This document shows positions 36,617 to 49,369 of a stretch of DNA of 64,000 nt, piece after piece (within the stretch, counting starts at the first letter, position 1; every line of letters begins with the position of its first letter). The stretch is taken from contig NZ_PNFP01000003.1 of the NCBI RefSeq assembly GCF_002940685.1, positions 434,001 to 498,000 of the forward strand. Reading direction: 5' to 3'. The notes beneath the pieces are model-generated. The model worked only from the letters and a program-made list of their open reading frames with translations. It was not told the DNA's origin and did not search any database. The DNA is from Ensifer adhaerens (lineage in GTDB: Bacteria; Pseudomonadota; Alphaproteobacteria; Rhizobiales; Rhizobiaceae). The position numbers and the translations under genes were made by a program.

Positions 36617-37753
36617 TCAGGCGGGAACAAAGGTCTCCGCAAACAGGCGATTGAGGTCCTCCACGACTTTTCGCGCGGGATCCTTGCGCAGCAGCCCATC
36701 ATTGATGCGATCCGAGCCCGCCTGCTGGAAGGCCATGTAGCCATCGTGCCGGGGACGAACCCAGGCTCCCTCGAGCGTCTTGCGGGTGGCGCGATAAAAG
36801 TCCGAGGTCGCGACATTGACGACTTGGTCGTCCCAGGCGGCCGCATGACCGGGCTGTCCGCCGCCTGAGGCATAGGGGCCGCGCTGGACCTCGTCGCTCG
36901 CGATGAAATAGGCGAAATCGATCGCCGCGTCACGCGCTTGCGAGAAGGCCGAGACGGCAATACCTGTTCCGCCCAGGGCGGAGCCGACGGGACCATTGTT
37001 TCCTGCGACCGGGATATCGCCGAACGTGACGAGAGCCGGCCGGAATCCGGGCATGGCATAGCTGACATAGCCGTAGATCAGCGGCGCGCACAAGGCCTTA
37101 GAAGCCGGATCGCTCATCGTCTCCAGCACGGCGATCGGGTCCATCGAGAAGCAGGCGGGATCGATCAGGTCCGTCAGTTCGCGCAGACGCTCGAAGGCGT
37201 CGATGCCCGCATCCACCTCGATCAATTGCCCCTCCCCGTCGCTGCGGCAGGCATGGCCGAGATTGGCGACGAGCGTGTAGAAGCACATCAGCGAATGTGG
37301 TGGGCGCATCGGCAGCGCCACCTTGCTCTGGCGCGCCAGATCCAGCATCTCCGACCAGCTATCGGCGCGCTCCGTCAGGTCCGGCCGCCAGGCCTGCACC
37401 TGGGTCGCCGCGTCGATCGGAAACGCCCATTGCCGTCCTTGCCAGGTGTAGCTCGGATAGGAGCGGCCGACGCTTGCCTCAAGAAGTGCCTTTCGCTCCG
37501 CCTCGCGGCCCGCGACGTCAAGCGGCGCCAGGCACTTTTCCTTGGTGATCTGGCCCACATGCGGATGGTCGATGACGATGAGATCATAGGCCCGTGCCAG
37601 TTCCTCGACCGGATAGGTCTCGAAGTCCTGCAGCGACCGCTTGTCCCATTCGACGGTGATGCCGGTGCGCTCCTGCCAGAGCCGCGAACAGGCGATCATC
37701 GGGTCGTAGCCGCGCGGGTGGCTCCAGGTCATGCCCTTCAAGGTGACGCTCAC
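36617..37753 (-). CDS. Solute-binding-protein-like protein without signal peptide
   Basis: The 378-residue protein has the family 1 extracellular binding protein fold (blocks YDLIVIDHPHVGQITKE, WAFPIDAATQVQAWRPD, GGTGIAVSAFSQARDAAIDFAYFI). However, it starts MSVTLKGMTWSHPRGYD with no hydrophobic leader. The ATG overlaps the CoA-transferase stop by four bases (ATGA), so this start is well supported. No permease or ATPase gene is nearby. It is therefore likely a cytoplasmic ligand-binding protein, or an exported protein that lost its signal. Its role with a CoA-transferase and a MaoC protein is unknown. Confidence 0.78.
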   Translation of the reverse strand: MSVTLKGMTWSHPRGYDPMIACSRLWQERTGITVEWDKRSLQDFETYPVEELARAYDLIVIDHPHVGQITKEKCLAPLDVAGREAERKALLEASVGRSYPSYTWQGRQWAFPIDAATQVQAWRPDLTERADSWSEMLDLARQSKVALPMRPPHSLMCFYTLVANLGHACRSDGEGQLIEVDAGIDAFERLRELTDLIDPACFSMDPIAVLETMSDPASKALCAPLIYGYVSYAMPGFRPALVTFGDIPVAGNNGPVGSALGGTGIAVSAFSQARDAAIDFAYFIASDEVQRGPYASGGGQPGHAAAWDDQVVNVATSDFYRATRKTLEGAWVRPRHDGYMAFQQAGSDRINDGLLRKDPARKVVEDLNRLFAETFVPA

Positions 37754-38910
37754 AGGCCGAACTCCTCTCGGATCGAGAGGCTATGCTCGCCGATGCGCGG
37801 TGCGGCGCGATCGACCTGGGCGCGCTTCCCGTTGACCCTCAGCGGCGATCGCGTCGTCAGGATCGAGACGTCGTCTTCACGCACGACCGTCTGCAGCATG
37901 TCGAGCACCCGGAAACCTTCGCTTTCGAGCAGTTCGTTCCAGTTGAGAACGCGGGCGCACCAGATGTCTGCCGGCTCAAGCAATGAGAGCCAATGGTCGA
38001 TGGTGTTTTCGGCGATCCGCTTGGCGATCAGCGCCTTGATCTTGTCCCGTTCGGAGAACCAGGAGGCCGGATCATCGCGATAGGCGTCGAGTTCTGGCAT
38101 TTCCAGGAGATCCGCAAGCTTCGGTATCGGGGTCATGGCGATGGCGAGATAGCCGTCCTTTGCCGGATAGACCCCGTAGGGCGCCGAGAGATAGGCATGG
38201 GCGCTGCGGAAGCCGGAGCGGGCCGGCAGCCGCCGGCCGTCGTTCAGGTGCGTCGTCAGCACTTCGAACTGGAAGTCGACGAGCGCCTCGAGCAGGCTGG
38301 TCTCGATCAGGCTGCCCTTGCCGGAAATGCCGCGCCGGACGAGCGCCGCAAGGATGCCTTGCGCGGCGGCTGCACCCGCAAGCATGTCGCCGATCGCCAG
38401 GCCAAAGGGCACCGGCCCCTGGCCCTCGTCGCCGTTCAGCCACATGACCCCGGAGCGCGATTGCGCGAGCAGGTCCTGTCCCGGTCGCCTTACCCAGGGG
38501 CCCTCCTCGCCGTAGCCGCTGATCGAGGCGTAAACGATCTTCGGGTTGATCGCCTTGACCGCCTCGTAGTCGAGTCCCAGGCGCTGGATGACGCCGGGGC
38601 GGAAGTTCTGGATGACGACGTCGGCTTTCGCGAGCAGCGTCTTCAGGGCGACAAGGTCGGCCTCGTTCTTGAGGTCGATCGCCAGGCTCTCCTTGGCGCG
38701 GTTGATGGCATGGAAGATCGTCGAATCGCCACCGATCTCGGTGTCGCTGAGATAGAGCCGCCGCGACAGGTCGCCGCCGTCGGGTCGCTCGATCTTGATG
38801 ACGCGCGCACCGAGATCCATGAGGCGCAGCGAGCAATAGGGGCCGGAGAGGAACTGGCTCATGTCGACGACGACAAGGCCAGAGAGCGGCAGTTCATTTT
38901 CAACAGTCAT
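37750..38910 (-). CDS. Family III CoA-transferase (CaiB/BaiF)
   Basis: The 386-residue protein opens with LPLSGLVVVDMSQFLSGPYCSLRLMDLGARVIKIERPDGGD, the family signature. The catalytic aspartate is expected in the block near LAIGDMLAGAAAAQGI (about 170-185). These enzymes move CoA between carboxylic acids, and some act as racemases or dehydratase activators. It lies between the MaoC-fold gene (seven bases upstream) and the binding-protein-like gene (overlapping). The operon may activate an organic acid to its CoA ester before hydration. Confidence 0.9.
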   Translation of the reverse strand: MTVENELPLSGLVVVDMSQFLSGPYCSLRLMDLGARVIKIERPDGGDLSRRLYLSDTEIGGDSTIFHAINRAKESLAIDLKNEADLVALKTLLAKADVVIQNFRPGVIQRLGLDYEAVKAINPKIVYASISGYGEEGPWVRRPGQDLLAQSRSGVMWLNGDEGQGPVPFGLAIGDMLAGAAAAQGILAALVRRGISGKGSLIETSLLEALVDFQFEVLTTHLNDGRRLPARSGFRSAHAYLSAPYGVYPAKDGYLAIAMTPIPKLADLLEMPELDAYRDDPASWFSERDKIKALIAKRIAENTIDHWLSLLEPADIWCARVLNWNELLESEGFRVLDMLQTVVREDDVSILTTRSPLRVNGKRAQVDRAAPRIGEHSLSIREEFGL

Positions 38911-38917
38911 TGCTATC

Positions 38918-39469
38918 TTACTTCTCGGTCTTGCCGACGAAATCAGCGGGATTCTTGTACTTCACGGTCTGCAGATGCTCGCAGTAGAGCACCAGTTCGC
39001 CCTCGCCCTTGAAGACCTGGTAGCTGGCTCGGATCAGCCCGAGCTCCTTGTAGCGGGGCGTTTTGTCCATGTTGGTGCGGATCGCGTAGATGGTGTCGCC
39101 AATGAAGACGGGCTTGATGAAGCGCAGCTTGTCATAGCCATAGGAAAAGGCGTTGACGCAGTTGGTGGCGACCAGTCCGAGTCCGGCCGAAAAGACGAAG
39201 GCGCCGGCGACCAGGCGCCTGCCGAAGATCCCCTCGCGCTCGGCAAACATCTGATCCTGCACATAAGGATGGATGTCGACGACCAGCGTGTTGAAGAGGT
39301 GGCTGTCGCTCTCGGCGATCGTGCGGCGCAGGGATCTGATGCGCTGCCCCACGGGCCAATCCTCGTAGAACCAGTTTTCCGCATTCCAGACGGGCAGGTC
39401 GGCATGGTCTTGCGGCATGTCGGCGGGGCGGGTCGAGGACACCCCGACAGTGGGTGTGAAGTCATCCAT
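38918..39469 (-). CDS. MaoC-fold acyl dehydratase-like protein
   Basis: The 183-residue hot-dog protein is first in its operon. The block [19 protein letters not shown] is nearly the same as in the MaoC protein at 25789-26235. The region equivalent to GDxNPxH reads VVDIHPYVQ, so Asp may be kept while the other residues differ; activity as a classic hydratase is doubtful. With the CoA-transferase it suggests CoA-ester chemistry. The promoter holds the TATGAAT-N5-GTTCACA dyad at 39555-39573, shared with the fucose-type cluster. Confidence 0.8.
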
Positions 39470-39554
39470 TGGTCAGTCCCTCATGCAAAAGTCGGCAATT
39501 GCGGTCGCCCGGCAGTTCAATGGCGGGCGCCGCTCGATCCGGTCCGGATCCTTA

Positions 39555-39573
39555 TATGAATAGTATGTTCACA
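39555..39573. promoter_or_regulatory. TGAAT-N5-TTCA dyad before the MaoC/CoA-transferase operon
   Basis: TATGAAT-AGTAT-GTTCACA lies 86 bases before the start at 39469. It matches the dyads at 22718, 33143 and 34075. The 39470-39759 gap holds no gene I can support. Confidence 0.5.
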
Positions 39574-39692
39574 TATGGATGGTGATTGCAACCCGCTGTT
39601 GGCCGATGGGTGCCTCTGGCGGCATGCGGCGCTGCAGCGACAGTCGTTCGGGAAGGCGGCAACCGCTGCCGCGCGGACAAGGCGCGACATTC

Positions 39693-39707
39693 GTCAATGT
39701 CGTTGAC
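39693..39707. promoter_or_regulatory. SorC operator-like dyad, autoregulatory
   Basis: GTCAA-TGTCG-TTGAC has perfect 5-bp arms and N5 spacing, 53 bases before the SorC start. The same core with longer arms is at 46901-46923. Confidence 0.55.
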
Positions 39708-39759
39708 TTTTGTCAGTATAGATGGAATATGTCAGAACCAATCTGCGAAAGACCAGCCG

Positions 39760-40740
39760 ATGCCCATCAGAGCCACCGACCAGATCATTCACAAGGCCGC
39801 CTGGCTCTACTATACGCACGGCCTGCGTCAGGACGAAGTGGCGCAGCGGCTGGAGATATCCCGCGCATCGATCGCCATGTATCTGCGCAAGGCCCGCGAG
39901 ATGGGCATTGTCACGATTACCACGTCGACCGAGCTGTTTTCTCAGGACGTTCTTGCCCGCGAGCTGGAGGACGCGACCGGCCTGACGACCGCCTGGCTCG
40001 TGCCGGAGGACCGGCAGGCCATGGACCCGACGGCCGAAATGCCTGTCGTTGCCGCTTCGGTCTTTCTCGAACTGATCAACAAGGGTGACCGGATCGGTGT
40101 TGCCTGGGGCCGCACGGTCTATCACATCGCCGACGTCATGCCCTTTGCCGATCTGCGCGGCGTCACCGTCGTGCAGCTTTGCGGCAATCTCGGCGCGCCC
40201 TATTCCTATCGTCCCGACCAATGTACGACCGAAATCGCCCGCCGCCTCAATGCCGAGGGCATCAATTTCTATGCGCCCCTCGTCCTTTCGTCCGAGCGCC
40301 TTGCCGAGGAACTGCGCGGCGAGCCCGTGATCAAGGAGCAGCTTGCGACCATTTCCGACTGCGGCCTCGCCCTCTATTCGGTGGGCGGCATCGAGGATGA
40401 CAGCCACCTCGTCAAGTGCGGCGCGCTGTCGGCAAAGGACATGCATGAAATGGGCGAAGAGGGCGCGGCGGGCGTCATCGCCGGGCAACTCATCGACCGC
40501 GACGGCCAATGGATGGACTGCGCGCACAATCGCCGCTGCATCTCGGCCGATCTCGATTCCATTCGCACGATCAAGAAGCGCATGCTGGTCGTCCAGGAGG
40601 ACAGCAAGTTCGAACCGCTGATGGCGGCCTTGAAGGGCGGCTTCGCCTCGCATCTCGTCATCACGGAATCGATGGCGCGCAAGGTTCTTGTTCGCTGGAA
40701 CCGCGAAGGGCTCGGCAGGAGCGGCTCAGGCGCTCCCTGA
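39760..40740 (+). CDS. SorC-family transcriptional regulator
   Basis: The 326-residue protein starts at ATG 39760. It has an N-terminal helix-turn-helix (about 8-40; YTHGLRQDEVAQRLEISRASIAMYLRKARE) and a SorC/CggR-like sugar-phosphate-binding domain (about 55-318), with the block GDRIGVAWGRTVYHIA. Members respond to sugar phosphates. It heads the region with the aldolase fusion (40796) and lies on the same side as its dyad at 39693. A like dyad at 46901 lies between the ABC transporter and kinase operons, so it probably controls the whole 39760-52431 region. Confidence 0.9.
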   Translation: MPIRATDQIIHKAAWLYYTHGLRQDEVAQRLEISRASIAMYLRKAREMGIVTITTSTELFSQDVLARELEDATGLTTAWLVPEDRQAMDPTAEMPVVAASVFLELINKGDRIGVAWGRTVYHIADVMPFADLRGVTVVQLCGNLGAPYSYRPDQCTTEIARRLNAEGINFYAPLVLSSERLAEELRGEPVIKEQLATISDCGLALYSVGGIEDDSHLVKCGALSAKDMHEMGEEGAAGVIAGQLIDRDGQWMDCAHNRRCISADLDSIRTIKKRMLVVQEDSKFEPLMAALKGGFASHLVITESMARKVLVRWNREGLGRSGSGAP

Positions 40741-40795
40741 GCCTCGAATTTGGGTCCGCCGATACCGGCCGGGCCGGTTTATCGGGAGGCTACTT

Positions 40796-42850
40796 ATGGA
40801 AAATCTCTGGCGTGACGACGAGGCGGAGACGGTCGTTGCGGGCTATCTGGCAAAGGGCATCGGCCGCGATCTGGCGCTGCGGACCTATACGACGCGGCTG
40901 CTCGGCGGCGAGCCGCGGCTCGTGCTGCACGGCGGCGGCAATACCTCGGTGAAGACGGAAATAACCGACCTCGTCGGCGATACCCATGCCGTGCTCTGCG
41001 TCAAGGGCAGTGGCTGGGACATGGGCACGATCGAGCCTGCAGGCCTGCCGGCCGTCAAGATCGCCCCTCTGCTCAAGAGCCGCAAACTCGAAAGGCTGTC
41101 GGACGAGGACATGGTGACGCTATTGCGCGCCAACCTCATCGACCCGGCCTCGCCGAATCCCTCGGTGGAGGCGCTGCTGCACGCCTTCTTGCCGCACAAG
41201 TTCGTCGACCACACCCATTCGACCGCCATTCTCGCCATTGCCGACCAGGCAAAGAGCCGGGAAATGTGCACCGAGCTTTTCGGCAAGAAGATGGGTTTCG
41301 TGCCCTATATCATGCCGGGCTTCGCGCTCGCCAAGGCGGCGGCCGAAGTCTTCGACCAGGACCCGACGGTCGAGGGGCTCATCCTCGACAAGCATGGCAT
41401 CTTCACCTTCGGCGAGAGTGCGAAGGAAGCCTACGACCGCATGATCCACTACGTCACGCTTGCCGAAGAGCATGTGAAGGCGAAGGGGCGGCATCCGTTT
41501 ACGCCCGCCACCCTGCCAGCAGCGCTCGCCAGCCCTGCCGATATCGCGCCGATGCTGCGCGGCGCCGTTGCCGTCGACAGGGGTGAAGGCCGCTATGAGC
41601 GGATGGTCAGCGTCTTCCGTTCCTCGCCTGAGATCCTCGATTTCGTCAACGCCGCCCAGGTTCAGGAGATGGCGGCCAGGGGCGTTTCGACGCCCGACCT
41701 TTCCATCCGCATCAAGACCGGTCCGATGGTGCTTCCGGCGCCGGCCAGGGACGATCTCCCTGGTTATCGGGCCGTGATCGACGAGCGCGTTGTCGCCTTT
41801 GCCGCCGACTATACCGAGTATTTCCGCAGCAATGATGCCCGCGACGATGTCAAGCGCATCATGCTCGATCCCATGCCGCGCCTGACGCTGGTGCCGGGGC
41901 TCGGCATGTTCGGCCATGGCCGGACCTACAAGGATGCGACGATCGCCGTCGATGTCGGCGAGATGTGGATCGAGGCGGCGCGCGACGCAGAATCCGTCGG
42001 TCGCTTCGAGCCGGTCAGCCGGCCGGATCTCTTCGATCTCGAATACTGGTCGCTGGAGCAGGCGAAGCTCGCCGGCGCCAAGCCCAAGCCGTTTACCGGT
42101 CAGGTCGCGCTCGTCACCGGCGGTGCCGGCGCCATCGGCGCTGCCATCGTCAAGGCCTTCGTCGCCGAGGGCGCACACGCCGTCGTGCTCGACCTCGACG
42201 GCGAAAAGGCCGCGACGGTCGCGAAAGCCGCCGGCAACAGTTCGATCGGCATCGCCTGCGACATCACAGATCCCGCATCCGTGCGCGCCGCCTTCGACCA
42301 GGCGGTCGCGACCTTCGGCGGCGTCGATATCGTCGTCTCCAATGCCGGTGCCGCCTGGGAAAGCCCGATCGCGACGATGGACGATGCGCTGCTGCGCAAG
42401 AGCTTCGAGCTCAACTTCTTTGCCCATCAGACCGTTGCCCAGAATGCCGTGCGCATCATGAAGGCACAGAAGACCGGCGGCGTGCTGCTCTTCAATGCCT
42501 CCAAGCAGGCGGTCAACCCGGGTGCGAAGTTCGGCGCCTACGGCCTGCCGAAGGCAGCGACGCTGTTCCTGTCGCGGCAATATGCGCTTGAACATGGCGT
42601 CGACCACATCCGCGTCAATGCCGTCAACGCCGACCGCATCCGTTCCGGCCTGCTCAACGACGAGATGATCGCCAACCGTGCGGCGGCGCGCGGTCTTTCG
42701 GTCAAGGACTATATGGGCGGGAACCTGCTCGGCCTTGAAGTAACGGCCGAGGATGTGGCCCGCGCCTTCGTGCACCACGCGCTTGCGGAACGGACCACGG
42801 CGGATGTCACGACCGTCGACGGCGGCAACATCGCGGCCGCCATGCGCTGA
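40796..42850 (+). CDS. Bifunctional class II aldolase / short-chain dehydrogenase
   Basis: The 684-residue protein starts at ATG 40796 after GGGAGGC. Residues about 1-400 are a class II aldolase/adducin domain (VLHGGGNTSVK, zinc ligands in DHTHSTA). Residues about 430-684 are an SDR domain (VTGGAGAIGAA glycine motif, YGLPK active site). The layout is that of rhamnulose-1-phosphate aldolase/lactaldehyde dehydrogenase fusions, which split a ketose-1-phosphate to DHAP and an aldehyde and then convert the aldehyde. No other rhamnose genes are nearby. With the kinase and isomerase at 47007-49369 it could act on a 5-deoxy- or 5-methylthio-ribulose-1-phosphate. Confidence 0.88.
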   Translation: MENLWRDDEAETVVAGYLAKGIGRDLALRTYTTRLLGGEPRLVLHGGGNTSVKTEITDLVGDTHAVLCVKGSGWDMGTIEPAGLPAVKIAPLLKSRKLERLSDEDMVTLLRANLIDPASPNPSVEALLHAFLPHKFVDHTHSTAILAIADQAKSREMCTELFGKKMGFVPYIMPGFALAKAAAEVFDQDPTVEGLILDKHGIFTFGESAKEAYDRMIHYVTLAEEHVKAKGRHPFTPATLPAALASPADIAPMLRGAVAVDRGEGRYERMVSVFRSSPEILDFVNAAQVQEMAARGVSTPDLSIRIKTGPMVLPAPARDDLPGYRAVIDERVVAFAADYTEYFRSNDARDDVKRIMLDPMPRLTLVPGLGMFGHGRTYKDATIAVDVGEMWIEAARDAESVGRFEPVSRPDLFDLEYWSLEQAKLAGAKPKPFTGQVALVTGGAGAIGAAIVKAFVAEGAHAVVLDLDGEKAATVAKAAGNSSIGIACDITDPASVRAAFDQAVATFGGVDIVVSNAGAAWESPIATMDDALLRKSFELNFFAHQTVAQNAVRIMKAQKTGGVLLFNASKQAVNPGAKFGAYGLPKAATLFLSRQYALEHGVDHIRVNAVNADRIRSGLLNDEMIANRAAARGLSVKDYMGGNLLGLEVTAEDVARAFVHHALAERTTADVTTVDGGNIAAAMR

Positions 42851-42921
42851 CGGTCTTCCGCCCGAGGGTCAAAGCGTGCCATCATGCATCCTCCCGCTAG
42901 AGTTGTTCGGATGGAGATGAC

Positions 42922-43146
42922 ATGGCTGATCCTTGGCCCTCGGATGCCGCGTTTCAAATGGGTGACTATGCCGCGAAGAAAGGCCGCGCCTCGTGGCGCG
43001 GCAAGATCGTCGGCTGGTACCGGACAGACCTGACCAGCCTCGGCTATGCGATCGAGAGCCACTTCGAGCCCGGCTCGGTGCAGATCTACCCCGAGACGGC
43101 AATCGAAACCTGGGTGCCGCCAACGGCGGAGAGCGAACAAGAGTAG
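42922..43146 (+). CDS. R67-type (DfrB) dihydrofolate reductase-like protein
   Basis: The 74-residue protein starts at ATG 42922 with GGAG upstream. It aligns without gaps to plasmid R67 DHFR (as I remember it), residues 6-65 against 19-78, with about 35 of 60 identical. The R67 active-site residues are all kept: K19 (K32), W25 (W38), S52-V53-Q54-I55-Y56 (S65-Y69). R67-type enzymes are tetrameric SH3-like barrels, naturally insensitive to trimethoprim. It has its own terminator and no integron or transposon is nearby, so it looks like a native chromosomal or megaplasmid homologue. Whether it reduces dihydrofolate is untested here. Confidence 0.8.
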   Translation: MADPWPSDAAFQMGDYAAKKGRASWRGKIVGWYRTDLTSLGYAIESHFEPGSVQIYPETAIETWVPPTAESEQE

Positions 43147-43156
43147 TCAGGACAAA

Positions 43157-43186
43157 AAAGGGGGCGGTCGATCAACCGCCCCCTTT
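43157..43186. terminator. Bidirectional Rho-independent terminator
   Basis: AAAGGGGGCGGT (43157-43168) and ACCGCCCCCTTT (43175-43186) form a 12-bp stem with loop CGATCA and A/T flanks on both sides. It separates the DfrB-like gene from the convergent binding-protein gene. Confidence 0.85.
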
Positions 43187-43203
43187 CGTTTCGTCTTGGG
43201 AGA

Positions 43204-44247
43204 TTAGGGCTTCGGCATCCATGCCGGCATGGCGACATCCGCATGGGCGAACTGCGGCAGCTTCACGCCGAGCTCTTCCATGTTCTTGATGTCCTGATCG
43301 TTCAGGTCCTTCTGGGTGATCAGCGTCGGCGGCACGACGACCTGGCGGCCCGGGTCTTCGCCGGCGAGCAGCATGGCGAGCGAGCGGACCGAGACCTGGC
43401 CGACGACGGCCGGGTTGGTGGCAGCCGTCGCCGTCCAGGCCGAACCCGCTTCGCGCATGGCGGCGATGTCCGATGTCGAAATGTCCGCCGAGTAGATCTT
43501 GACGCTCGACGACAGGCCAGCCTCGTCGACAGCAATCTTCACGCCCTTGGCGAACTCGTCGTAGGGCGCGAACATCACGGTGATGTCGGGCTTGGCCGAA
43601 ATCACCGCGCGGGCCTGGTTGGCGACCGAGTTGGCGATCGGGTTGTCCATCGTGCCGAATTGGGCGGCTTCCTCGATGCCGGAATACTTCGCCTTGAATT
43701 CCTTCCAGGTCTCGTCGCGGCGGTCGAGCGGCGCGATGCCGGCGACATAGACGTAGCCGGCCTTGAAGCTTTCGCCATTGTCCTTGACGGCCTGCTCGAG
43801 GGCAAGGCGGGCGAGGTCGCGGTCGGACTGCTCGATCTGCGGGATCTTCTCGTTCTCGACATTGACGTCGAAGGCAACGACCTTGATGCCGGCGTCAACG
43901 GCGCGCTGGGCCGCTTCCTTCATCGATTCCGTCAGGCCGTGCTGGATGATGATGCCCTGCACGCCGAGTGCTATCGCCTGGTCGACCATGTCCGCCTGGA
44001 GCGCTGCATCCTGGCGGCTGTCGAAGACCTGCAGCTGTACGCCAAGCGCCTTCGACTGCGCCTCGACGCCGGCGAGATACGACTGGAAGAAGTCGCCGGT
44101 CGAAAGATAGCGCACGAGCGCGATCTTCACGTCGCCGGCCTTGTCGAACGGCTTCGGCATGTCGGCGGCAAAGGAGGGCACGCCGAAGGCGGCCGCCCCC
44201 ATCAACCCGAGCGTCAAGCGGCCCAGGCTTCTGCGAGTCATGTTCAT
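43204..44247 (-). CDS. CUT2 (ribose-type) ABC transporter binding protein
   Basis: The 347-residue periplasmic protein starts at the ATG 44245-44247, with GGAGGAGAC upstream; two more ATGs lie close by. The twin-arginine-like leader MTRRSLGRLTLGLMGAAAFG ends near SFA-ADMPK. The body is a ribose/xylose-type binding protein (pentose/hexose). It is the last gene of the minus-strand transporter set and follows the permease after 48 bases. The ligand is probably the free pentose (5-methylthioribose or 5-deoxyribose?) used by the divergent kinase operon. Confidence 0.9.
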   Translation of the reverse strand: MNMTRRSLGRLTLGLMGAAAFGVPSFAADMPKPFDKAGDVKIALVRYLSTGDFFQSYLAGVEAQSKALGVQLQVFDSRQDAALQADMVDQAIALGVQGIIIQHGLTESMKEAAQRAVDAGIKVVAFDVNVENEKIPQIEQSDRDLARLALEQAVKDNGESFKAGYVYVAGIAPLDRRDETWKEFKAKYSGIEEAAQFGTMDNPIANSVANQARAVISAKPDITVMFAPYDEFAKGVKIAVDEAGLSSSVKIYSADISTSDIAAMREAGSAWTATAATNPAVVGQVSVRSLAMLLAGEDPGRQVVVPPTLITQKDLNDQDIKNMEELGVKLPQFAHADVAMPAWMPKP

Positions 44248-44295
44248 GTCAGTCTCCTCCACTGGTGAACTTTTGTTTTCCGCTGAAGAACAGCT

Positions 44296-45345
44296 TCAGC
44301 GTTTGCCTCTTTTCGAGAGCGCAAAGGTGAAGATCAGGGCAGCGACGAGCACGGCGCCCTTGATGAAATCCTGGGTGTAATAGGGGGCGTTCATCATCGT
44401 CAGCCCCTGCAGCAGGATGCCGACGAAGAGCGCGCCGATCGCCGTGCCGAAGGCGTTCGGCTTGGCGGCGCCAAGCACGGCAAAACCGATCAGCGCGGCG
44501 GCAACCGCATCGAGCAGCAGGTTGTTGCCCGATGCAATGTCGCCGCGGCCGAGGCGGGCGGCAAGCAGGATGCCGCCGATCGAGGCGAAGACGCCGGAGA
44601 TGATATAGGCGGAGATCTTGTAGGCATTGACCGGCGCGCCGGCGAGACCGGCCGCACGCTCGTTGGAGCCGACGGCATACATCATGCGGCCGAAGCGGGT
44701 GTATTCGAGGAAGAACCAGATCACGATCGCAAGCACGATCAGCACGACCACCGACACCGGAACGAGATTGGGCAGGATGAAATCGAAACGGTGGCGGCCG
44801 AGCGCCAGGAAGGCCGGGCTGAAGGTGCCCGCAGCGACCGAACCGTCGGGAAGCGTCATGCCTGTCGCGATCGACCTGCCTTCGGTCGGAATGCGCTGGA
44901 GACCGAGCAGCAGGAACATCATGCCGAGTGTTGCGAGCAGGTCGGGGACGCGCATGTAGACGATGATGACGCCGTTGATGAAGCCGACCAGCACCCCGAT
45001 GGCAAGGCAGACGAGCGTCGCCGTCAGCGCGTCGCCGCCCATTACCACCATCACATAGGACGAGGCCATCATCGCCGTCGTTGCGACGGAGCCGATCGAG
45101 AGATCGAACCCACCGACGACGAGCGTCGCCGTCACGCCGAGCGCCAGGATGCCGGTGATCGATACGGACTGCAGAATGAAGACGGCGCTTTGCGGCGAGG
45201 CGAATCCGCCGGTGACGAGCGAGAAATAGAGGACCATCCCGGCAAGAAGCACCAGGAAGCCGTATTTGATCGCTGCCTCGCGGATCCCCGACCCGCTCGA
45301 AGGGACGGCGACCGATGCTGCGGAATTGCTCTGTTCAGTGCTCAT
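44296..45345 (-). CDS. CUT2 ABC transporter permease (RbsC-like)
   Basis: The 349-residue inner-membrane protein has about ten membrane segments. It has the RbsC-family block GGFDLSIGSVA (about 98-108) and GSNERAAGLAGAPV, which contacts the ATPase. It works as a homodimer with the double ATPase at 45342-46859, with which it overlaps by four bases (ATGA). A CGCTGAAG/CTTCAGCG stem at 44281-44301 spans its stop and may limit read-through to the binding-protein gene. Confidence 0.91.
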   Translation of the reverse strand: MSTEQSNSAASVAVPSSGSGIREAAIKYGFLVLLAGMVLYFSLVTGGFASPQSAVFILQSVSITGILALGVTATLVVGGFDLSIGSVATTAMMASSYVMVVMGGDALTATLVCLAIGVLVGFINGVIIVYMRVPDLLATLGMMFLLLGLQRIPTEGRSIATGMTLPDGSVAAGTFSPAFLALGRHRFDFILPNLVPVSVVVLIVLAIVIWFFLEYTRFGRMMYAVGSNERAAGLAGAPVNAYKISAYIISGVFASIGGILLAARLGRGDIASGNNLLLDAVAAALIGFAVLGAAKPNAFGTAIGALFVGILLQGLTMMNAPYYTQDFIKGAVLVAALIFTFALSKRGKR

Positions 45346-46859
45346 GACGCATGGACCTGCTGATAGAATTGACCGGCGATTTCCGACAGAAGCCGCTCGA
45401 CGTCGATGTCGGCATTGCGATGCTCGCCGACGATGGTGTGCTCCGACATCACGAGGATGCGGTCGGCGACTTCGAAGGCTTCGTCGATTTCGGTCAGAAA
45501 GAGGATCGTGGCACGCCCGGCCGCCGATGCGCGCAGTTTCTCGCCGATATCGCGCCGTGCGGCGATGTCGACGCCCTGGAAGGGTTCGTCGAGGATGAGC
45601 AGGCGCGAAGGCTCGGAAAGCCAGCGCCCGACCATGACCTTCTGCTGGTTTCCGCCCGATAGCGTCTGCAGCTCGTCCCGCTCGCTGCGGCAGACGACGC
45701 CAAGCGCGGCAATCTGCTGGCGTGCCTTGTTCTTTTCCGCCCGCCGGCTCGATATGCCGAAGCGCGAGAGCCGGCGCAGGAATGGCAGGCTGATGTTTTC
45801 GTAGATGTTGAAGTCAGGGACGATACCGCTTTCGGCACGATCCTTGGCGACGAGGAAGACACCGCGGGCAATGGCCCGGCCGGTGCTTGCCGGCGCATAG
45901 CGCCCGCCGTCGAGCGTCATTTCACCGGCAAAGGGTGCGCGCGCGCCAAACAGGGTTTCGGCGAGCGCGGTCTTGCCGACGCCCACGAGCCCGGTGACGG
46001 CGACGATTTCACCGTCACGAAGGGTAAAATCGAACGGACGCGCCTGGTCCGACAGCTTGAGGCCGCGAACTGCAAAGACCGGAGCGCCGCCGTCGCGAAG
46101 GTCAACGGCGCCGGCCGAGACCTTGCGGCCGAGCATGGCGTTGACCGCGCCCTCATAGTCCAGCTCCGGCCCTTCGAACCGGCCACTGATGCGGCCATCA
46201 CGCAGCGCCACGATACTGTCTGCAAGGCGGCGGATATCCGACATGCGGTGCGAGATATAGAGAATGGCGACGCCGCGCGCCTTCAGCCGGTCGACGAGAT
46301 CGAAAAGCCGGTCAGCCTCCGCGCTCGACAGCGACGAGGTCGGCTCGTCGAGGATCAGCACCTTCGGCTCGTGCGCCATGGCACGGGCGATCGCCACCAT
46401 CTGGCGGTCGGCAAGCGTCAGGTCGTTGATGTTGGCGCCAAGGTCGATCGCAAGGCCCATGCGGGAGGCGACGGCTGCCGCCTCGCGCCGGACCCGGCGC
46501 GGGTTGAAGAACAGCCGCGCGCCGCGTCCGTTCAGCCGGTCGAGGGTGAGATTGGTCGCCACATCGAGATCGGCGACGACCCCGTCATTGATGTTCTGGT
46601 GCACGGTGACAACGCCCGCGCGGATCGCTTCGGCCGGTGTCGTCGGCTCGAAGGGCATACCGGCGAGCGTGATCGTGCCGGCATCGCGGGTGTAGACGCC
46701 GCTCAGGATGCGCACGAGCGTGGATTTGCCGGCGCCGTTGGCGCCCATCAGGACTGTAACCGCCCCTGCCTTGAGATCGAGGTCCACCCCTCTGAGCACC
46801 GGTACCGGCCCAAAGGATTTGCGCACGCCCTCAATGCGAAACACTGCCTGTTCGCTCAT
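45342..46859 (-). CDS. CUT2 ABC transporter ATPase (RbsA-like, double domain)
   Basis: The 505-residue protein contains two ATPase domains. The first has Walker A GANGAGKST (about 39-47) and Walker B VLILDEPTSSLS. The second has the usual degenerate Walker A GLVGVGKTA (about 289-297) and signature LSGGNQQKVMVGRWL with Walker B LLILDEP. The ATG follows GGGAGGAGAG. It is the first gene of the minus-strand transporter operon, divergent from the kinase gene at 47007, with the SorC-type palindrome between them. Confidence 0.92.
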   Translation of the reverse strand: MSEQAVFRIEGVRKSFGPVPVLRGVDLDLKAGAVTVLMGANGAGKSTLVRILSGVYTRDAGTITLAGMPFEPTTPAEAIRAGVVTVHQNINDGVVADLDVATNLTLDRLNGRGARLFFNPRRVRREAAAVASRMGLAIDLGANINDLTLADRQMVAIARAMAHEPKVLILDEPTSSLSSAEADRLFDLVDRLKARGVAILYISHRMSDIRRLADSIVALRDGRISGRFEGPELDYEGAVNAMLGRKVSAGAVDLRDGGAPVFAVRGLKLSDQARPFDFTLRDGEIVAVTGLVGVGKTALAETLFGARAPFAGEMTLDGGRYAPASTGRAIARGVFLVAKDRAESGIVPDFNIYENISLPFLRRLSRFGISSRRAEKNKARQQIAALGVVCRSERDELQTLSGGNQQKVMVGRWLSEPSRLLILDEPFQGVDIAARRDIGEKLRASAAGRATILFLTEIDEAFEVADRILVMSEHTIVGEHRNADIDVERLLSEIAGQFYQQVHAS

Positions 46860-46900
46860 TCTCTCCTCCCGATGAAGGCAGGTTAGGATAGGCTTCCGTC

Positions 46901-46923
46901 AAATGTCAAGGCCATTGACATTT
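46901..46923. promoter_or_regulatory. SorC operator-like palindrome between divergent operons
   Basis: AAATGTCAA-GGCCA-TTGACATTT has perfect 9-bp arms. It lies 42 bases before the ATPase start and 84 before the kinase start. The core TCAA-N5-TTGA equals that at 39693-39707. Confidence 0.65.
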
Positions 46924-47006
46924 GCTATCATGCCGCCTTAGTTGTGACCACACACGGCATGGCTGCGAGCGGTGGAGGCCCGCGCCATGCGTTGGAGGAG
47001 AACGAT

Positions 47007-48278
47007 ATGGACAAGCAGGTCTTCAAGGCGCTGAGCGCCGCGACGTTGCCGGAAAAACTCGGTGGCAACGCCGTTCTGAGAGAAAAGATCGGGGCGGACT
47101 CGTCGCGCTGGAGCGTCAAGGAAGTTGGCGACGGCAACCTCAACCTGGTCTTCATCGTGACGGGCGACACGGGTGCTGCCATCGTCAAGCAGGCGCTGCC
47201 CTATGTGCGCCTTGTCGGCGAAAGCTGGCCGCTGCCGCTGAAGCGCTCCTACTTCGAATATCACGCGCTGAAGCGCCAGGCTGCGCGCGACCCCGGGCTT
47301 GTGCCGGAGATCTATTTCTTCGACGAATCCCAGGCGCTCATCGTCATGGAATTCCTGACGCCTCACGTCATTTTGAGGCGCGCGCTGATCGACGGGCGGC
47401 AACTGCCGAAGATCGGCCGTGATCTCGGTCTCTTCGTTGCACGCACGCTCTTTCGCGGCTCTGATCTCTCGATGGCCACGCGCGAGAAGAAGGCGGACCT
47501 TGCGCTTTTCGCCGACAATATCGAGCTCTGCGATATCACCGAGAACCTGGTGTTTTCCGACCCCTATTTCGAGGCCGAACTCAATCGCCACACCACGCCG
47601 CAACTCGATCCCGTTGTCGCCGAGCTCCGCGCCGACCGCGACCTCAAGGTCGAGGCGCAGCGGCTGAAACATCTGTTCTCGGCAAAAGCCGAAACGCTCT
47701 GCCACGGCGACCTGCATACAGGGTCAGTGATGGTGACCGACGACGAAACCCGCGTCATCGACCCGGAGTTTGCCTTTTACGGACCGATCAGCTTCGACGT
47801 CGGCATGCTGCTCGCCAACTTCTGGATGAGCTACTTCTCGCAGAGTGGCCACGAAAGCGCGCCCAGTGCCCGCGACGGCATGCGCGCCTATCTGCTCGAT
47901 ACGATCGAAGTCATCTGGGAGACCTTCCGCGCCGAATTCGCCCATCTCTGGCGGACGGAGCGCAACGGCATTCTCTACCAGGCAAGCCTCTTTGAGGCGC
48001 GCAACGACCCGTTCGGCGCCGAACAGGCGCTCGACATCGTCATCGACGAGATCTGGCGCGAGATGCTGGGCTTTGCCGGCGTCGAGATGCATCGCCGCAT
48101 CCTGGGCCTCGCCCACAATGCCGATTTCGAAACCATCGCCGATCCCGACCGCCGTGCCGCCTGCGAAGAAAAGGCGCTGAAGCTTGGGCGTCATCTCGCC
48201 GTCAACCGGCACCATATCCATAGCCTCAAGGACATCCGCGCACTTGCGGAGCGCCTTCAGAAGGAGACATCAGCGTGA
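47007..48278 (+). CDS. mtnK: S-methyl-5-thioribose kinase-like protein
   Basis: The 423-residue protein starts at ATG 47007 after TTGGAGGAGAA. The protein-kinase-like fold of MtnK shows the catalytic loop HGDLHTGS (233-240) and the metal motif DPEFAFYGP (252-260). The family phosphorylates 5-methylthioribose at C1 in methionine salvage. The classical downstream salvage enzymes are not here. Instead an MtnA-like isomerase, a split transketolase and a RuBisCO-like protein follow. The true substrate could be methylthioribose or another 5-modified pentose imported by the divergent CUT2 transporter. Confidence 0.85.
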
Positions 48279-49369
48279 AAGTCGGAGAACGCCACTACCA
48301 TACGATCTGGCTCAACGAGGACGGCCGCTCCGTCGATATCATCGACCAACGCTGGCTGCCGCACGAGTTTCGCGTCGTAACCTTGAAGACGGTCGCGGAC
48401 GTGGCCGTTGCCATCCGCGACATGTGGGTGCGTGGCGCGCCGCTGATCGGCGTCACGGCCGCCTACGGTGTCGCGATCGCGATGGCGAAGGACCCGTCGG
48501 ACGCGCATCTCGACGCCGTATGGGAAGAACTCAACGAAACCCGCCCGACCGCCATCAACCTGCGCTGGGCGCTGAATGCAATGCGCGACCACCTGCGCCC
48601 CTTGCCGCAAGGCGAGCGTGCCAAGGCAGCCTATGATCGCGCCGCGGAGATCGCCGCGGAAGATGTCGAACTCAATCGCGCCATCGGCGCAAACGGCCTG
48701 AAGGTCATCCGCGAGATTGCCGCGAAGAAGGGCCCGGGCGAACCCGTGCGCATCCTTACCCATTGCAATGCCGGCTGGCTTGCGACCGTCGACTATGGCA
48801 CTGCGACCGCGCCCATCTACATGGCGGTCGAGGAAGGCATTCCGGTTCACGTCTATGTCGACGAGACGCGCCCGCGCAATCAGGGCGCCTATCTCACCGC
48901 CTGGGAGATGAACGGCCACGGCGTGCCGCACACGCTGATCGTCGACAATGCCGGCGGACACCTGATGCAGCATGGCGATGTCGACATGGTCATCGTCGGC
49001 ACGGACCGCACGACGGCCAACGGCGATGTCTGCAACAAGATCGGCACCTATCTGAAGGCGCTGGCCGCGCGCGACAACGGTGTGCCCTTCTACGTCGCCC
49101 TCCCCTCGCCGACGATCGACTGGACGGTTCGCGACGGGGTCAAGGAAATCCCGATCGAGGAGCGCACCGCCGACGAGGTGAGCTTCGTCCAGGGGCGCGC
49201 GAGCGACGGCACGATTGCCAGTGTGCGCATCTCGCCGGAAGGCAGCCCCGCCGCCAATCCGGCCTTCGACGTCACGCCCGCGCGCCTCATCACCGGCCTG
49301 ATCACCGAGCGCGGCATCGCAACGCCGTCGCCCGAAGGCCTCAAGGCGCTTTTCCCAGAACGGAGCTGA
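48275..49369 (+). CDS. mtnA: MtnA-like aldose-1-phosphate isomerase
   Basis: The 364-residue protein starts at GTG 48275, overlapping the kinase stop as GTGA. It is an aIF2B/MtnA-fold isomerase with [13 protein letters not shown], catalytic Cys in [10 protein letters not shown] (about 162-171) and catalytic Asp in [10 protein letters not shown]. The IVDNAGGHL segment differs from the usual MtnA form (DSMAA-type), so a related substrate such as 5-deoxyribose-1-phosphate is possible. It should turn the kinase product into a ketose-1-phosphate. That product could go to the aldolase fusion or to the RuBisCO-like protein. Confidence 0.87.

What the first reader, a model, noticed from the sequence alone, without database searches (positions are those of the whole stretch)
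42922..43146. Stand-alone R67/DfrB-type dihydrofolate reductase homologue outside any integron
The 74-residue product aligns by hand without gaps to R67 DHFR, about 35 of 60 positions identical, with the active-site Lys, Trp and S-V-Q-I-Y strand all kept. DfrB enzymes are known mainly from mobile trimethoprim-resistance cassettes and their natural source is unclear. Here the gene has its own ribosome site and terminator in a rhizobial sugar cluster with no integron or transposase nearby, so it could represent the ancestral, non-mobile family.
Basis: partly seen in the sequence, partly recalled or inferred. Interest (0 to 1): 0.82.

Follow-up and report, generated by a model that had tools for sequence, protein, structure and literature searches.

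The report
DfrB-like reductase gene in Ensifer
A soil bacterium carries a tiny gene that closely resembles a known trimethoprim-resistance enzyme, but it looks like a small accessory gene that arrived by horizontal transfer and settled there, not the long-sought ancestor of that resistance family.

Summary
Window 42922-43146 (+) encodes a 74-residue protein matching Pfam PF06442 (R67 DHFR; 79.4 bits, cut-off 25) and aligning without gaps to R67 (35 of 58 identical). K32, W38, W45 and VQIY are kept; the AlphaFold2 model fits R67 structures at 0.9-1.1 A. It misses NCBIfam's strict DfrB cut-off (79 of 137 bits).

The 'own terminator' belongs to the surrounding methylthioribose-salvage cluster and stands at the empty sites compared. 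In two other Rhizobiaceae genera the aldolase is followed directly by that terminator, so about 250 bp carrying the gene were added in this Ensifer group. The gene is patchy (4 of 16 genus genomes; 3 of 265 in the genus of Bradyrhizobium pachyrhizi, one broken), has other neighbours elsewhere, and an 86%-identical copy on Rhizobium plasmids is a Tn3-family passenger. In the tree it joins viral copies, apart from integron DfrB1-10, though an AU test does not exclude a joint clade (p 0.088). Purifying selection is strong between species, yet two of seven Ensifer copies read have lost W38 or Q67.

Most likely: a mobile, phage-related DfrB-type tetramer able to reduce dihydrofolate despite trimethoprim, redundant with FolA. 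Non-integron dfrB is already published.

The parts
42922..43146 (+). DfrB-like gene (PF06442), 74 aa
42913..42916 (+). Shine-Dalgarno-like GGAG; a GGAG at this spacing is also in front of the L18, Casida A, Rhizobium plasmid and Bradyrhizobium copies
   Evidence: upstream sequences printed
43157..43186 (.). terminator between convergent genes; belongs to the cluster, also present where the gene is absent
42851..43149 (+). approximate extra segment (about 250 bp net) relative to empty sites in two other Rhizobiaceae genera; exact ends not resolved
   Evidence: 359 bp between last sense codons here, 107 and 103 bp in L214 and L215
40796..42850 (+). neighbour: bifunctional class II aldolase/short-chain dehydrogenase; part of the host locus, not of the inserted segment
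43207..44262 (-). neighbour: sugar-type ABC transporter substrate-binding protein

Best explanation
The gene encodes a minimal R67/DfrB-type protein that begins where R67 residue 14 stands. Inferred mechanism, as in R67: four identical SH3-like subunits form one central pore lined by VQIY and Lys32, which holds NADPH and dihydrofolate side by side so that hydride passes between them; trimethoprim inhibits this enzyme poorly, so the reaction continues when the normal enzyme FolA is blocked. A FolA-type enzyme is encoded elsewhere in this genome, so the gene is an accessory back-up, not the housekeeping enzyme. It was gained horizontally as a tiny single-gene segment (about 250 bp net) in the common ancestor of four Ensifer species-level genomes, in the slot behind an aldolase of a methylthioribose-salvage cluster, and has since been inherited there under purifying selection. 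Its alphaproteobacterial clade moves by more than one route (a Tn3-family transposon in one case) and its nearest outside kin are viral-contig copies and a Novosphingobium copy near an integrase. Shown by sequence: fold family, key residues, insertion relative to relatives, patchy spread, purifying selection, transposon passenger. Inferred: tetramer, DHFR activity, trimethoprim bypass, natural benefit, direction gain rather than loss.
For: Fold and residues: mean pLDDT 91.2; R67 chains 0.9-1.1 A, TM 0.93-0.95 over the target; next hit E 1.8e-2. Function by analogy: PMC9835603 (abstract and two sections read) reports high trimethoprim resistance for four of five DfrB homologues, whose SH3-like folds share 55-98% identity; PMC9774602 reports resistance for all ten of DfrB12-21. 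FolA in the same genome. Insertion. Patchiness. Mobility of kin. Selection. Viral kin.
Against: No activity, tetramer or resistance was measured for this clade. Two of seven Ensifer copies read carry W38R (NER9) or Q67H (G005), and several close pairs with few changes have dN/dS of 0.27-0.29; a Bradyrhizobium copy is frameshifted and a Mesorhizobium copy lacks its start, so the function is dispensable in some hosts. R67's H62 is E here. NCBIfam's DfrB cut-off is missed. Ensifer sp. M14 is reported susceptible to trimethoprim (PMC6115938, passages read); whether it carries the gene is unknown to me. No sigma-70-like promoter was found in front of the gene.
Confidence: 0.68

Rival explanations
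1. It is an SH3-like binding module of phage origin whose real task is not folate chemistry; any DHFR activity is adventitious, as PMC9835603 suggested for the ancestors of DfrB.
For: Relatives are plentiful in phage collections: 26 phage records, RefSeq duplicates included, and 200 of 226 pattern stretches in viral contigs; in 24 of the 80 viral copies read the longest frame has at least 40 residues before the domain. Of the four nearest outside copies, L020 and L014 have an integrase and L021 RecE/RecT-type genes within 3 kb; for L114 the two proteins scanned gave only weak tail-like or no matches. FolA makes a second DHFR redundant.
Against: The substrate-contact residues of R67 are kept in nearly all aligned copies (K19 and W25 invariant, Q54 at 90% or more), although the viral search patterns favoured VQIY and the NER9 copy with W38R was not in that alignment. 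The copies of this clade are stand-alone with no fused domain.
Confidence: 0.3
2. It is the ancestral, non-mobile source of integron DfrB genes.
For: Shares an ungapped core and the [FW]PS[ND]AxF stretch with DfrB1; fixed position in four Ensifer genomes; the AU test does not exclude one joint clade (p 0.088).
Against: Extra relative to empty sites, Tn3 passenger in kin, best tree separates it from DfrB1-10 with viral lineages between (39 of 58 inner branches unresolved in the reduced tree); Burkholderiales carry non-mobile dfrB of 95-100% amino-acid identity to DfrB10 (PMC11662351, rows seen).
Confidence: 0.04
3. It is a working part of the methylthioribose-salvage cluster, for example a reductase paired with the aldolase.
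For: In the genus, the 94-100% identical aldolase and the gene occur in the same 4 of 16 genomes.
Against: The 13 orthologous aldolase loci (78-92%) of other Rhizobiaceae that I checked have no such gene in the flank held, 0.4-1.5 kb; relatives of the gene elsewhere have unrelated neighbours. The slot accepts other cargo: an antitoxin-like and PIN-domain pair in L213.
Confidence: 0.04

Closest known systems
R67 DHFR / DfrB1-DfrB10 (integron-borne type II DHFR)
   Same: Ungapped SH3-like core, 56-60% identity over 57-58 residues; K32, W38, W45, VQIY; modelled fold within 0.9-1.1 A
   Different: Lacks the 13 N-terminal residues, has a C-terminal tail of about 10 residues, H62 to E; no integron gene seen; separate clade in the best tree
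Environmental DfrB12-21 and putative B/C sets (PMC9774602; abstract, introduction, results, tables read)
   Same: Mostly without integron or insertion sequence nearby
   Different: Those share 63-92% identity with known DfrB and are listed as beta-, gamma- or unassigned Proteobacteria; this one is at 60% and alphaproteobacterial
Burkholderiales dfrB (PMC11662351; outline, passages, sections 13 and 17 read)
   Same: Small non-mobile dfrB, often in recurring surroundings
   Different: Its scan of assemblies required at least 85% nucleotide identity to known dfrB, out of reach for this clade; Bradyrhizobium is the one candidate genus outside Burkholderiales
DfrB-H2 to H6 (PMC9835603; abstract, section on identification, discussion read)
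   Same: Homologues, two of them in phages, with the same core and residues
   Different: H3-H6 carry extra domains; W45 is not conserved there, kept here
WP_111219419.1, 'DfrB family' protein of Rhizobium tumorigenes-type plasmids
   Same: 86% identical; closest annotated relative in the rows listed
   Different: Tn3-family transposon passenger rather than fixed gene

Membership tests
Pfam PF06442 DHFR_2 (R67 fold) | Score over Pfam's gathering cut-off | tested here: met
   79.4 bits vs 25
Pfam PF06442 DHFR_2 (R67 fold) | SH3-like R67 protomer fold | tested here: met
   Predicted model, Foldseek TM 0.93-0.95 over the target, 0.9-1.1 A; a prediction, not a solved structure
DfrB enzymes (NCBIfam NF000331 trim_DfrB) | Score over NCBIfam's curated cut-off for the named resistance gene | tested here: not met
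   79.3 bits vs 137
DfrB enzymes | K32, W38, W45 and VQIY | tested here: met
   K19, W25, W32, V53-Y56; W38 lost in strain NER9 and Q67 in G005
DfrB enzymes | 78 residues with an N-terminal tail | tested here: not met
   74 residues, begins at R67 residue 14
DfrB enzymes | Groups with DfrB1-10 in a tree | tested here: inconclusive
   Best tree separates them; AU test of joint clade p 0.088; 52 columns only
DfrB enzymes | Homotetramer | not testable with these tools
   Only single chains can be modelled
DfrB enzymes | DHFR activity and trimethoprim resistance | not testable with these tools
   Needs bench work
Integron gene cassette | intI or attC next to the gene | tested here: inconclusive
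   Nine neighbouring proteins showed no integrase and only about 10 bases lie between stop and terminator stem, too short for attC; no attC model was run

The most novel reading that the evidence does not exclude
The R67/DfrB fold is at heart a phage protein family, and bacterial stand-alone DfrB genes arose from phage genes at least twice: once as this alphaproteobacterial clade (kin of viral and Novosphingobium copies near recombination genes, later picked up by a Tn3-family transposon and single-gene insertions) and once as the integron DfrB clade (sister in the tree to a copy on a 37-kb viral contig, L162). Trimethoprim resistance would then be a by-product of a phage function still unknown.
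Probability: 0.33. Interest if true: 0.68.

Novelty: new member of a known kind. Interest (0 to 1): 0.42.

Why it matters
It shows an alphaproteobacterial DfrB clade that a survey requiring close identity to known dfrB could not reach, with an empty site, a transposon passenger and viral kin. That makes two questions testable: what DfrB-type proteins do without trimethoprim, and whether phages are the pool from which resistance genes of this fold were drawn. It is not evidence that the ancestor has been found.

Tried and rejected
Rejected: 'own terminator'; 'ancestral non-mobile'; membership in the integron DfrB clade (not fully excluded); functional pairing with the aldolase: suggested by perfect co-occurrence in the genus but not kept at 13 of 13 aldolase loci of other Rhizobiaceae, L213-L225 (flank held 0.4-1.5 kb; one of these genomes, G633, has a distant 35% copy about 20 kb away on the same contig).

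Led nowhere: no Tn3 end like that of the Rhizobium plasmids within the window (up to 3 mismatches); no promoter-like site; PADLOC gave no family, PHROGs only a family of unknown function (phrog_31682). B. pachyrhizi's insert replaces roughly 90-230 bp of other sequence rather than sitting in a clean site, and shows no terminal repeats that I could see; an attC-like 'AAGCGTTAGAT' downstream of it was seen by eye only. Class and phylum surveys (2 of 385; 2 of 398; own genome included, the other match below the cut-off in both) scored at most 13-14 candidates per genome, so they are lower bounds. The viral survey patterns contained GSVQIYP, so VQIY conservation there is partly imposed, and many of the 80 viral loci are near-copies. 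The first alignment of intergenic regions had the wrong orientation for most loci and was redone. In one search viral rows with stops or identical sequence were dropped, leaving 87 rows; one search dropped viral rows over 90% alike, leaving 65 (one of the nearest viral copies among those dropped). Output was cut in the middle; loci in the cut part were not read there.

Full report
What is there. Window 42922-43146 (+) is an open frame of 74 codons, 71 bases after the stop of a bifunctional aldolase/short-chain dehydrogenase gene (40796-42850) and facing a substrate-binding protein gene (43207-44262, -). Pfam finds PF06442 (R67 dihydrofolate reductase) and nothing else at E up to 1, 79.4 bits against a cut-off of 25. 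Four R67 sequences are its only matches among PDB sequences at E up to 1. The alignment has no gap: 35 of 58 identical over residues 5-62. R67 residues K32, A36, W38, W45, Y46, L50, T51, S59, G64, S65, V66, Q67, I68, Y69 and P70 are kept; H62 is E. That K32, W38, W45 and VQIY matter is from PMC9774602 and PMC9835603; the choice of the other positions is recalled. The AlphaFold2 model from 47 aligned sequences has mean pLDDT 91.2 and matches R67 structures at 0.9-1.1 A, TM 0.93-0.95 over the target; only R67 entries came below E 0.001 (7 entries). Selection on the protein is strong: window against Casida A 16 synonymous changes on 48 sites and 5 nonsynonymous on 162; dN/dS is 0.05-0.16 for the window or L18 copy against the other copies, but 0.27-0.29 in several close pairs with two to six changes in all, such as B. 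pachyrhizi and B. oropedii.

The locus. The neighbours include S-methyl-5-thioribose kinase (46944-48278, 497 bits vs 275), its isomerase MtnA (48275-49369, 500 vs 271) and the aldolase/dehydrogenase (1162 vs 639); a sugar-type ABC transporter and a DeoR/LsrR-type regulator are assigned by matches below NCBIfam cut-offs. I read this as a methylthioribose-salvage cluster. Orthologues of the binding protein at 91% or more occur in 12 of 16 genus genomes. The 4 with the DfrB-like gene are the same 4 that have this aldolase at 94-100%; the best match anywhere else in the genus is 53%. In the other 8 of these 12 the same terminator is present; in six the regulator lies directly before it, in G007 and G015 other sequence lies between. 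In other Rhizobiaceae the orthologous aldolase (78-92%) stands without the gene in 13 of 13 loci checked, L213-L225. In two of them, L214 and L215, of different genera, the distance between the last sense codons of the aldolase and binding-protein genes is 107 and 103 bp, against 359 bp in the window, with a like terminator. So about 250 bp of extra DNA carries the gene, and the terminator is not the gene's. The slot takes other cargo: L213 has an Rv0623/VapB-like and a PIN-domain gene there.

Spread. The gene is in 4 of 151 relatives' genomes, 4 of 16 of the genus, 9 of 394 of the family, five of these only 33-53% identical, and 3 of 265 in the genus of B. pachyrhizi, one of them broken. In 84,980 species genomes a peptide-pattern scan found 11 loci from 33 stretches. 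In E. adhaerens strains E-60, Casida A, Corn53 and NER9 the orthologue lies on replicons of 1.46-1.59 Mb. Naive gene calls within about 6 kb share no neighbour between Ensifer and the other loci. B. pachyrhizi and B. oropedii share only about -100 to +340 around the gene, within the 3 kb or less compared on each side; B. oropedii and B. acaciae share a downstream flank, so theirs is one locus. The place where B. pachyrhizi has the gene (between genes that I take by eye for dctA and a glutathione transferase) is without it in B. oropedii and in four other genomes aligned, which hold other sequence there. A Hyphomicrobiales MAG and Sphingomonas prati share only -134 to +271. In Rhizobium K1/93 and K15/93 a 4,064-bp identical block holds tnpA (Pfam DDE_Tnp_Tn3, E 1.7e-144), tnpR (resolvase) and the gene, with imperfect inverted ends, and a 5-bp ATCAT duplication in K1/93 but none in K15/93. 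The B. acaciae copy is frameshifted and the Mesorhizobium one lacks its beginning. Of seven Ensifer copies read, NER9 has W38R and G005 has Q67H; the plasmid search counted seven Ensifer records, of which four were read. DfrB12, with Q67H, is reported to give reduced resistance (PMC9774602).

Kin and origin. The plasmid collection has 98 records with a match; in the 60 listed the clinical DfrB1-4 and DfrB10 rows stand at 56-60%. The phage collection has 26, all under 60%. IMG/VR gives 200 confirmed of 226 pattern stretches, of which 80 were kept and read. Among these 80 the median longest frame is 77 aa and in 67 the domain ends within 15 residues of the stop. In a tree of 87 rows and 52 columns the alphaproteobacterial clade (bootstrap 98) joins the Novosphingobium copy and viral contigs L114, L020 and L021 (100); DfrB1, 2, 3, 4 and 10 join viral contig L162 (100) elsewhere. 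The hosts of these viral contigs are unknown to me. The AU test of one clade of the alphaproteobacterial rows plus DfrB gave p 0.088, and 0.43 when the nearest viral and Novosphingobium copies were included; 39 of 58 inner branches of that reduced tree are unresolved. Separation is thus favoured but not proved, and the tree is unrooted. L020 and L014 have an integrase within 3 kb, L021 exonuclease VIII- and RecT-type genes.

How it works. By homology it should form a homotetramer whose central pore binds NADPH and dihydrofolate and is poorly inhibited by trimethoprim. Evidence for activity is by analogy: four of five tested DfrB homologues and all ten of DfrB12-21 gave resistance (PMC9835603, PMC9774602). 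I rate about 0.85 that over-expression in E. coli gives trimethoprim resistance. The genome has a FolA-type DHFR (PF00186, 193.6 bits), so the gene is not needed for folate as such. Why it is kept is unknown; a back-up reductase under antifolate-like stress and a phage-derived function are both open.

What is known. Searches of the held library show that non-integron environmental dfrB, distant homologues with activity, two phage homologues and Burkholderiales hosts are in print. The searches 'dfrB, trimethoprim, Rhizobium, integron' (3 papers), 'R67 dihydrofolate reductase, Bradyrhizobium' (none) and 'dfrB, Tn3, Rhizobium tumorigenes' (15 of 41 listed, two of three terms enough) listed no paper whose title or abstract start describes this clade or the Tn3 passenger; apart from PMC9774602 the listed papers were not opened, and subscription journals are mostly outside the library. 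The plasmid record already calls the Rhizobium protein 'DfrB family trimethoprim-resistant dihydrofolate reductase'.

Verdict. Observation confirmed; ancestral reading not supported. A new member, from an alphaproteobacterial and partly mobile clade, of a known family.

Noticed in passing
L162:6001-6156 (IMGVR_UViG_3300034073_002798): A viral contig carries a copy 81% identical to DfrB1-10 over a 52-residue core, nearer to them than any other row outside DfrB1-10 in the tree set, with a resolvase-family and a UvrD-like gene in the same locus.
   Followed up: partly
L034, L035, L036 (Rhizobium K1/93, K15/93 and R. tumorigenes 1078 plasmids): Tn3-family transposon of 4,064 bp with tnpA, tnpR and a DfrB-like passenger; on plasmids named Ti in two of the three. 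L036 was seen by its annotation only.
   Followed up: partly
L191:2986-3189 (P. aeruginosa plasmid p1160-VIM): A divergent DfrB-family gene, 50% identical to the window protein, lies next to aadA1 with an ISPa62-family transposase gene on either side of the two, in a multidrug-resistance region; the table shows no predicted-resistance row for it.
   Followed up: no
window 37750-49369: MtnK, MtnA and an aldolase/dehydrogenase with a sugar-type transporter, read as methylthioribose import and salvage, followed on the other side by a CoA-transferase-family gene and a small protein resembling part of PaaZ.
   Followed up: partly
L213:833-1491: An antitoxin-like (PF07704) and a PIN-domain gene occupy the slot where the window has the DfrB-like gene.
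   Followed up: partly
L010:8316-8326 (B. pachyrhizi): AAGCGTTAGAT, recalled as like the end of an integron attC site, downstream of the gene; seen by eye only, not tested.
   Followed up: no
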